In this document: positions 46,955 through 48,162 of the stretch, piece by piece
How positions within the stretch are numbered: the first letter of the stretch is position 1
Layout of the letters: each line of letters opens with the position of its first letter
Assembly (NCBI GenBank): GCA_021014945.1
Contig: MU266387.1
Location: 1-64,000 of the forward strand
Length of the DNA stretch: 64,000 bases
Direction of reading: 5' to 3'
Source: Leucogyrophana mollusca
Taxonomy: Eukaryota; Basidiomycota; Agaricomycetes; Boletales
Translations under genes and position numbers: made by a program
The notes under the pieces: generated by a model
What the model saw: the letters and a program-made list of their open reading frames with translations, nothing else
Database searches by the model: none
What the model was told of the DNA's origin: nothing

Positions 46955-48162
46955 ATGTTGCGATCAGCGCTGTCATTTACCGCAAGGCACGCTACACGTC
47001 GGTCGTGGGCTCCCTCTCGTTGTTACCACCCTCTGGCACCATCGAATTGGTCTTCGCCATCTGCAAACCTCGTGCCAATAGTCATCGAACAAACGGTGCG
47101 TGGCCCTGCAGGCTTTCGGCACAACAGGACTCATGTCTTCTCTTTCTGGGCTCAGGGAAGAGGCGAAAGATCGTATGACATCTTTTCTCGACTCTTGCGT
47201 GAGCGCGTAATCATGTTGTATGGACCGGTGGGCTCAAGTTCGATCAGCCTTACTCATCCGTCACTTATTCACATCTTTGTTTGTACATTGCAGATACGAG
47301 ACACGGACTCCGCCCTTACAGTGGCTCAACTCTTGTTTCTAGAAGCCGAGGAAACCTCAAAACCCATTCACCTCTACATCAATTCCCCAGGTGGCAGCGT
47401 CACCGCTGGTCTAGCCATTTATGACACAGTAAGCAGTGACCCATTCGATTTTGACATTGACGCTATATCCCGTACGATATCATCTCGCAGATGCAGGTTC
47501 GCGCATTGTCCCTTGATGACATCTTTGCAGATCCTCTGACCGTCATTTGGTCAAATTAACAGTACGTTTCTTCTCCGATACACACTTACTGCGTTGGCCA
47601 AGCATGTTCGATGGGTTCTCTATTACTTGCTGCGGGTTAGTCCCTGTTCACTTCATTTACCACTTAAGGTTTGAATTCGCTCCAGGTGAAAAAGGAAAGC
47701 GTCACTGTCTGCCCAACGCCAGCATCATGATTCACCGTAGGTGTCCCTGGTGGCACAGATACCGCGTTACTTAGGTGATTTCACTAGAGCCCTCTGGCGG
47801 CGCTTCAGGTCAAGCATCCGACATCGCTATTCACGCTAAGGAGATTCTTCGCGTGCGACAACTATTAACAGGTATATATCAGCGACATTGTTCCAAACAG
47901 GGCGAAAGTGTGGCTTCAGGATTAGAACGGTTTGGTAAGGCTCTAGCAACCATAATTACCGCCTTCTTGACAGCATGTCTATGATTTCAGAGACTGCTTT
48001 GGAACGGGATTACTTCATGACAGGTATGGTTATGATCCTTTGTATATTACCCTGCTTATCTGCTGACCTGTGGTATCAGCCCAAGAAGCTCTAGCATTCG
48101 GCATTGTTGATGGCATTCTGGAGAAGAGGCCTAGTTCCGAAAGCGATGCTTCGCCCCCATGA
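46955..48162 (+). CDS. CLPP: Mitochondrial ATP-dependent Clp protease proteolytic subunit
   Basis: A protein of 246 aa from nine exons: 46955-47095, 47156-47227, 47294-47428, 47491-47496, 47563-47635, 47686-47736, 47788-47934, 47991-48023 and 48080-48162. It forms the matrix serine protease barrel fed by ClpX. The N-terminal ~35 residues (MLRSALSFTARHATRRSWAP) are Arg/Ser/Ala-rich without acids, a matrix-targeting presequence. Core motifs: VPIVIEQTGRGERSYDIFSR, YGPIRDTDSALTVAQLLFLE, YINSPGGSVTAGLAIYDT, GQACSMGSLLL with catalytic Ser ~134, ASIMIHQPSGGASGQASDI with His ~159, and the C-terminal FMTAQEALAFGIVD. Exon 4 is only six nucleotides (ATGCAG) and supplies the invariant Met-Gln of DTMQYVSSPI. 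Many fungi, including budding yeast, lack ClpP. Confidence 0.95.

What the first reader, a model, noticed from the sequence alone, without database searches (positions are those of the whole stretch)
47429..47562. Six-nucleotide microexon in CLPP
Exon 4 is just ATGCAG between a 62-nt and a 66-nt intron. It supplies the Met-Gln of the invariant IYDTMQYVSSPI segment next to the catalytic core. Skipping it keeps the frame but deletes two conserved residues. It is among the shortest coding exons that can be argued for, and it is hard for annotation pipelines to find.
Basis: partly seen in the sequence, partly recalled or inferred. Interest (0 to 1): 0.75.

Follow-up and report, generated by a model that had tools for sequence, protein, structure and literature searches.

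The report
Six-base exon in mushroom ClpP gene
A mushroom-family fungus splits a mitochondrial protease gene so that one coding piece is only six bases long, and because gene-finding software tends to miss such pieces, many published versions of this protein appear to be wrong at exactly that spot.

Summary
In a nine-exon mitochondrial ClpP gene (46955-48162, + strand) of a fungus whose closest listed ClpP is from Hygrophoropsis (Boletales), exon 4 is ATGCAG (47491-47496), between introns of 62 and 66 nt. Of 35 in-frame, stop-free splice models enumerated here, one restores IYDTMQYVSSPI; a suitably placed AG|ATGCAR|GT arose in 9 of 200,000 shuffles. Support from relatives is indirect: 107 of 158 listed homologue clusters carry MQ there, 23 lack exactly those two residues, 28 carry other letters. 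This is the only indel hot spot in the conserved core, sitting where a gene finder that misses a 6-nt exon would err. All 21 clusters known only from jgi/lgn/ena contigs (probably transcripts; inferred) carry MQ. So the microexon is probably constitutive and predates the split of at least eight Agaricomycete orders, but no relative's genomic DNA and no RNA of this species was available. It is a new member of a known kind: 5-6 nt exons in basidiomycetes and 1-nt exons in Fusarium are in print, so 'among the shortest' is overstated, and the segment is not strictly invariant. The useful result is a recurrent annotation error in a conserved protease.

The parts
46955..47095 (+). CLPP exon 1 (141 nt): start codon, presumed mitochondrial targeting stretch, start of the protease domain
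   Evidence: conceptual splicing; homology; targeting stretch inferred from position only
47156..47227 (+). CLPP exon 2 (72 nt)
47294..47428 (+). CLPP exon 3 (135 nt), ends ...GLAIYDT (phase 0)
47429..47490 (+). intron 3, 62 nt, GTAAGC...CGCAG; TTGAC branch-point-like motifs 30 and 36 nt from its 3' end
47491..47496 (+). exon 4, the 6-nt microexon ATGCAG = Met117-Gln118, phase 0/0
47497..47562 (+). intron 4, 66 nt, GTTCGC...AACAG; CTGAC motif 23 nt from its 3' end; donor CAG|GTTCGC matches U1 at 6 of 9 places thanks to the microexon's own CAG
47563..47635 (+). CLPP exon 5 (73 nt), starts YVSSPI; holds the presumed catalytic Ser134 (QACSMG)
   Evidence: alignment to human ClpP; catalytic role recalled
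47686..47736 (+). CLPP exon 6 (51 nt), includes presumed catalytic His159
   Evidence: catalytic role recalled
47788..47934 (+). CLPP exon 7 (147 nt)
47991..48023 (+). CLPP exon 8 (33 nt)
48080..48162 (+). CLPP exon 9 (83 nt) with stop codon

Best explanation
ATGCAG at 47491-47496 is a constitutive 6-nt coding exon of the single mitochondrial CLPP gene found, flanked by two short GT-AG introns. Each intron is probably recognised across its own length (intron definition), so exon length does not matter, and the two are probably removed one after the other: once one intron is out, the six bases are simply the edge of a normal exon. The two residues keep the register of the conserved IYDTMQ stretch just before the active-site serine. 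Shown here: boundaries, frame, uniqueness of the splice solution, MQ in most homologues and in all 21 probably transcript-derived ones, and a hot spot of faulty protein models at this place across the class. Inferred: inclusion in mRNA of this species, the order of intron removal, the transcript nature of the 21 contigs, and presence of both introns in the relatives' DNA.
For: Spliced frame gives a 246-aa ClpP, 92% identical to Hygrophoropsis aurantiaca ClpP, which carries MQ; NCBIfam NF001368 295.3 bits with MQ, 280.8 without (cut-off 249). One of 35 splice models gives IYDTMQYVSSPI; 9 of 200,000 shuffles match. 158 distinct homologue clusters from three capped lists of 120: 107 MQ, 23 exact loss of two residues, 28 other letters; 33 have an indel at residues 116-118, while no other place in residues 48-225 has an indel in more than 2. 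20 of the 28 fillers begin with Val, as reading a GTN donor as a codon would give (reason inferred). Two wrong models enumerable in the window besides plain skipping (IYDTVNYV, IYDTVRYV) equal the filler in Imleria badia (P0020) and Vararia minispora (P0056). Pisolithus croceorrhizus is listed once with MQ (P0016) and once without (P0027). Exact-loss models occur in 8 orders looked up. 21 of 21 clusters known only from jgi/lgn/ena contigs (925-5776 bases, 19 of them under 2.2 kb) have MQ, against 86 of 137 others, Fisher p = 2.3e-4. Donors, acceptors and branch-like motifs of introns 3 and 4 are no worse than those of the gene's other six introns.
Against: No RNA of this species and no genomic DNA of any relative was seen; DNA pattern scans of viral and prokaryotic contigs gave 0, as expected of collections without fungal genomes. 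23 of 158 clusters, in eight orders, lack MQ, and some could be real isoforms. VQ (8 clusters) could be a true residue change, not a fault. Intron 4's donor is off consensus at +3, +4 and +6. The homologue lists are capped and ranked by similarity to queries, two of three of which carry MQ, so the MQ share is not an unbiased rate.
Confidence: 0.94

Rival explanations
1. One 134-nt intron (47429-47562) is removed and the protein truly lacks Met-Gln (IYDTYVSSPI).
For: The GTAAGC...AACAG pair is valid and in frame; 23 of 158 listed homologue clusters are annotated so; the deleted form still scores over the NF001368 cut-off (280.8 against 249 bits).
Against: MQ is kept in E. coli and human, in 107 of 158 clusters and in 21 of 21 probably transcript-derived ones. 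Chance presence of a well-placed AG|ATGCAR|GT is about 5 in 100,000. The loss appears inside genera and one species that also show MQ.
Confidence: 0.03
2. The microexon is regulated: a share of transcripts skips it, giving a ClpP subunit shorter by two residues and probably inactive, so that inclusion tunes protease activity.
For: Skipping keeps the frame; two routes give the skipped product: a 134-nt intron, or use of the microexon's own CAG as acceptor (47429-47496) with the 66-nt intron. A condition-dependent microexon switch is reported for Trichoderma Xlr2 (PMC11121469; passages and one section).
Against: 21 of 21 probably transcript-derived clusters include MQ. No unusual RNA structure: z +0.88, 162 of 200 shuffles fold at least as well. 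Faulty gene models explain the MQ-less entries without regulation.
Confidence: 0.05
3. Exon 4 is longer than six bases: intron 3 as proposed, but a GC donor further on (47503 or 47527), adding residues after MQ.
For: Two such models are in frame and stop-free (IYDTMQVRYV, IYDTMQVRALSLDDIFYV).
Against: They need GC donors (GCATTG, GCAGAT) where a GT follows the six bases directly, and insert residues into a stretch that shows no insertion in 107 of 158 clusters; the second leaves a 36-nt intron, below the 50-66 nt of the gene's other introns.
Confidence: 0.01
4. The microexon is real here, but recent; faults at the same place in relatives come from a single intron next to MQ, not from a shared microexon.
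For: Relatives' DNA was not seen; a fault with extra residues needs only one intron near the site.
Against: 23 clusters lose exactly the two codons, which requires both sides of MQ to be taken as intron edges; these come from at least eight orders.
Confidence: 0.12

Closest known systems
Microexons of 5 and 6 bp in basidiomycete bglA genes (Sirobasidium magnum, Rhodotorula minuta), PMC9142197 (passages and a table seen)
   Same: Basidiomycete coding exons of 5-6 bp between short introns; there established by comparison with cDNA.
   Different: Another gene (beta-glycosidase), yeasts of other lineages; no class-wide conservation or annotation-error pattern was seen in the passages.
Microexons (2-10 aa, shortest 6 bp) in Phanerochaete chrysosporium P450 genes, PMC1184071 (passages seen)
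   Same: Agaricomycete, 6-bp coding exon, short introns.
   Different: P450 genes spread over families; the passages offer them as possible alternative-splicing sites, whereas here the exon looks constitutive in one conserved gene.
One-nucleotide exon of Fusarium CYP621A, PMC12940212 (abstract, introduction and discussion read)
   Same: Found by the same reasoning: a conserved motif can be rebuilt only with a tiny exon; annotation pipelines miss it.
   Different: 1 nt, ascomycete, supported by sequence reads; the case here is 6 nt, in frame when skipped, and without RNA.
Xlr2 microexon switch of Trichoderma virens, PMC11121469 (passages and one section)
   Same: Fungal microexon.
   Different: Regulated by glucose and changes the encoded protein; no sign of regulation here.
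Human mitochondrial ClpP, PDB 1tg6
   Same: Orthologous protease; Met136-Gln137 align with the microexon's two residues; collinear around the presumed active-site Ser153/His178.
   Different: Nothing about human exon structure was tested.

Membership tests
Mitochondrial ClpP (NF001368 / PF00574) | Profile match over the curated cut-off | tested here: met
   NF001368 295.3 bits against 249; exon by exon PF00574 over cut-off at three places, all in this gene. The equivalog model TIGR00493 was not reached (271.8 against 308.6).
Mitochondrial ClpP (NF001368 / PF00574) | Catalytic Ser-His in place | tested here: met
   Ser134 and His159 align without gaps to human residues 153 and 178; that these are catalytic is recalled. 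The Asp was not checked.
Mitochondrial ClpP (NF001368 / PF00574) | Mitochondrial location and ClpX partner | tested here: inconclusive
   ClpX-like exons at G000:C9:26094-27360, best E 8e-18, none over the family cut-off when scored exon by exon. Location not tested.
Microexon (coding exon of about 30 nt or less) | Six coding bases between two canonical GT-AG introns of normal length | tested here: met
   62 and 66 nt against 50-66 nt for the gene's other six introns.
Microexon (coding exon of about 30 nt or less) | Inclusion in mature mRNA | tested here: inconclusive
   Only by proxy: 21 of 21 probably transcript-derived homologue clusters carry MQ. No RNA of this species.
Regulated (switch) microexon | Condition-dependent inclusion | not testable with these tools
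   Needs RNA-seq or RT-PCR.
Conserved Agaricomycete CLPP microexon | AG|ATGCAR|GT between two introns in genomic DNA of relatives | not testable with these tools
   No fungal genome collection on hand; scans of viral and prokaryotic contigs gave 0. Indirect pattern in protein models only.

The most novel reading that the evidence does not exclude
The 6-nt exon is a class-wide, ancient element kept through Agaricomycete evolution because its inclusion is adjustable: partial skipping would yield ClpP subunits two residues short that enter the 14-subunit barrel and lower its activity, so some of the MQ-less database proteins would be real isoforms.
Probability: 0.05. Interest if true: 0.65.

Novelty: new member of a known kind. 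Interest (0 to 1): 0.4.

Why it matters
If right, 51 of the 158 listed Agaricomycete ClpP clusters differ from MQ at two residues, most of them probably because gene finders miss a six-base exon. That makes this gene a ready benchmark for microexon detection, warns against reading such gaps as biology, and gives a case in which one tiny exon appears to have been kept in at least eight fungal orders. It does not reveal a new mechanism.

Tried and rejected

Structure prediction of Hygrophoropsis ClpP with MQ (alignment A1, 22 rows) and of the Pisolithus microcarpus model without MQ (A2, 18 rows) failed to give usable models (mean pLDDT 41.7 and 43.0; pTM 0.29 and 0.42); nothing is taken from them and no fold search was made.

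RNA structure holding the microexon: no support (z +0.88). Motif rarity: rejected as evidence (77 against 67 in the control).

Dating beyond Agaricomycetes: searches with Rickenella and with the divergent P0132 were meant to reach more distant fungi; every organism named in the lists is, as far as I recognise it, an Agaricomycete (ten names looked up). Other basidiomycete classes were therefore not examined.

A YTRAY branch-point scan finds motifs in introns 3, 4, 7 and 8 but not in 1, 2, 5 and 6, so it cannot weigh much.

First classification of homologues used narrower patterns: one search left some rows as NA and one search left P0136 unclassified; P0136 carries MQ. Counts given are those.

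Full report
What is there. The window carries a ClpP gene on the + strand. Conceptual splicing gives nine exons (46955-47095, 47156-47227, 47294-47428, 47491-47496, 47563-47635, 47686-47736, 47788-47934, 47991-48023, 48080-48162) and a protein of 246 residues (one search had the start one base off). Exon 4 is ATGCAG, between a 62-nt and a 66-nt GT-AG intron, phase 0 on both sides, encoding Met117-Gln118. The protein matches human mitochondrial ClpP (1tg6, E 6.2e-77) and the NCBIfam ClpP subfamily model NF001368 (295.3 bits, cut-off 249); it does not reach the equivalog cut-off of TIGR00493 (271.8 against 308.6). The nearest listed protein is from Hygrophoropsis aurantiaca, 92% identical, of the order Boletales. 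The assembly (32.3 Mb, 545 contigs) shows PF00574 matches only in this gene (three exon matches).

Is it more than chance? With GT or GC donors, AG acceptors, introns of 30-170 nt and sites between 47405 and 47580, 35 models with one or two introns stay in frame and free of stops. One gives IYDTMQYVSSPI. Two more keep IYDTMQ but add residues by GC donors; none of the five single-intron models keeps MQ. In 200,000 dinucleotide shuffles of the 134-nt stretch, 9 held AG|ATGCAR|GT with at least 40 nt left on each side. The bare 10-mer is not rare in the assembly (77 against 67 for its backward control). Donor and acceptor signals of introns 3 and 4 lie in the range of the other six introns: U1 matches of 5 and 6 of 9, against 5 to 7. 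The weak donor GTTCGC is helped by the microexon's own CAG.

Relatives. Three protein searches, each listing the best 120 of about 8,000 matches, gave 158 distinct homologue clusters (E. coli ClpP left out of the count). Between IYDT and the next conserved residues, 107 read MQ, 23 read nothing (exact loss of two residues) and 28 read something else: VQ 8, VK 3, and 17 single cases from one residue (Q) to twelve (VHLKCSDVNFAQ). In an alignment of all 158 with the window's protein, 33 have an indel at residues 116-118; elsewhere in residues 48-225 no position has an indel in more than two. Twenty of the 28 fillers start with Val; reading a GTN donor as a codon would give Val (inference). The fillers VN (Imleria badia) and VR (Vararia minispora) are what two of the wrong splice models in the window itself give. 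One species, Pisolithus croceorrhizus, is listed with MQ (P0016) and without (P0027). The exact loss occurs in at least eight orders: Boletales, Agaricales, Russulales, Polyporales, Gloeophyllales, Jaapiales, Amylocorticiales and Hymenochaetales (one species of each looked up); an insertion at the same place occurs in Gautieria, Gomphales. The plainest reading is that gene finders fail at a microexon these fungi share. Exact loss of both codons needs intron edges on both sides of MQ. The DNA of these relatives was not seen.

Transcript-like evidence. 21 of the 158 clusters are known only from jgi, lgn or ena contigs of 925-5776 bases (19 of them under 2.2 kb). All 21 have MQ, against 86 of 137 others (Fisher p = 2.3e-4). 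Whole ClpP frames on contigs of 1-2 kb point to spliced transcripts, since the gene in the window has eight introns; this origin is inferred, and a eukaryote-aware gene finder working on DNA contigs is not excluded. The lists are ranked by similarity, and two of three queries carry MQ, so the shares are not unbiased rates.

What the two residues do. Met117-Gln118 align with human residues 136-137, 16-17 residues ahead of Ser134, which aligns with human 153, the active-site serine (role recalled; alignment). E. coli ClpP also reads IYDTMQ, but the following residues differ, so the segment as a whole is not invariant. Dropping the two residues lowers the NF001368 score by 14.5 bits. Structure prediction gave no usable model.

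How it most likely works. Fungal introns are short and are thought to be recognised across the intron (established view, recalled), so a tiny exon is not a handicap in itself; two spliceosomes cannot sit on six bases at once, so removal is probably one intron after the other. If intron 4 goes first, the microexon's CAG competes with the true acceptor six bases upstream, and its use would give the skipped product; if intron 3 goes first, this cannot happen. That suggests intron 3 first, an inference that can be tested with partly spliced RNA. No RNA structure stands out.

What is known. A search for microexon with ClpP found 0 papers; further searches on fungal and basidiomycete microexons were made, and nothing about this exon appeared in their listings. 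In the passages that I saw: 6-bp exons in Phanerochaete P450 genes (PMC1184071); smallest exons of 5 and 6 bp, set by cDNA, in basidiomycete bglA genes (PMC9142197); exons of two and three nucleotides in Phlebia radiata gene models (PMC6540522); a one-nucleotide exon in Fusarium CYP621A (PMC12940212; abstract, introduction, discussion). A '6-nt exon 2 sequence' in Rhodosporidium DAO1 (PMC4624585) is unclear as to whether the whole exon is meant. Three further papers mention microexons only as an aligner setting (PMC4014442, PMC3990503, PMC8022950). So the kind is known; this gene, and the class-wide annotation fault, I did not find described in these searches.

Verdict. The finding is right about what is there; modest in novelty; worth recording because it is shared, constitutive as far as one can tell, and a cause of errors in public protein sets.

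Noticed in passing
homologues P0001-P0141 and P0143-P0159: 51 of 158 listed ClpP clusters differ from MQ at the microexon position (23 exact losses, 28 fillers), probably mostly faulty gene models in public databases.
   Followed up: yes
47485-47498: The microexon ends in its own CAG six bases after the acceptor CAG of intron 3 (tandem acceptors), so skipping could also come from acceptor choice if intron 4 is removed first.
   Followed up: partly
7548-9419 (-) and 9337-10119 (+): A HET-domain (heterokaryon incompatibility) reading frame lies head to head with a porphobilinogen deaminase exon; the open frames, read stop to stop, overlap by 83 bases.
   Followed up: no
35503-38106 (-): 867-residue open frame with TPR repeats near its start and a long Pro/Ser/Arg-rich tail, reminiscent of Ssn6/Cyc8-type corepressors (resemblance recalled, not tested).
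   Followed up: no
24846-26522 (+): QLQ-HSA-SNF2 open frame, the front part of a Snf2/Brahma-type chromatin remodeller.
   Followed up: no
17250-17951 (-) and 19103-20032 (+): ArsA/Get3-type ATPase exon and SRP68 exon.
   Followed up: no
602-3109 and 3135-4115 (+): Weak DUF4470 match (below the family cut-off) followed by an open frame ending in a MYND zinc finger, perhaps one gene.
   Followed up: no
G000:C9:26094-27360 (-): ClpX-like exons elsewhere in the assembly, a likely partner of this ClpP; each below the family cut-off when scored alone.
   Followed up: partly
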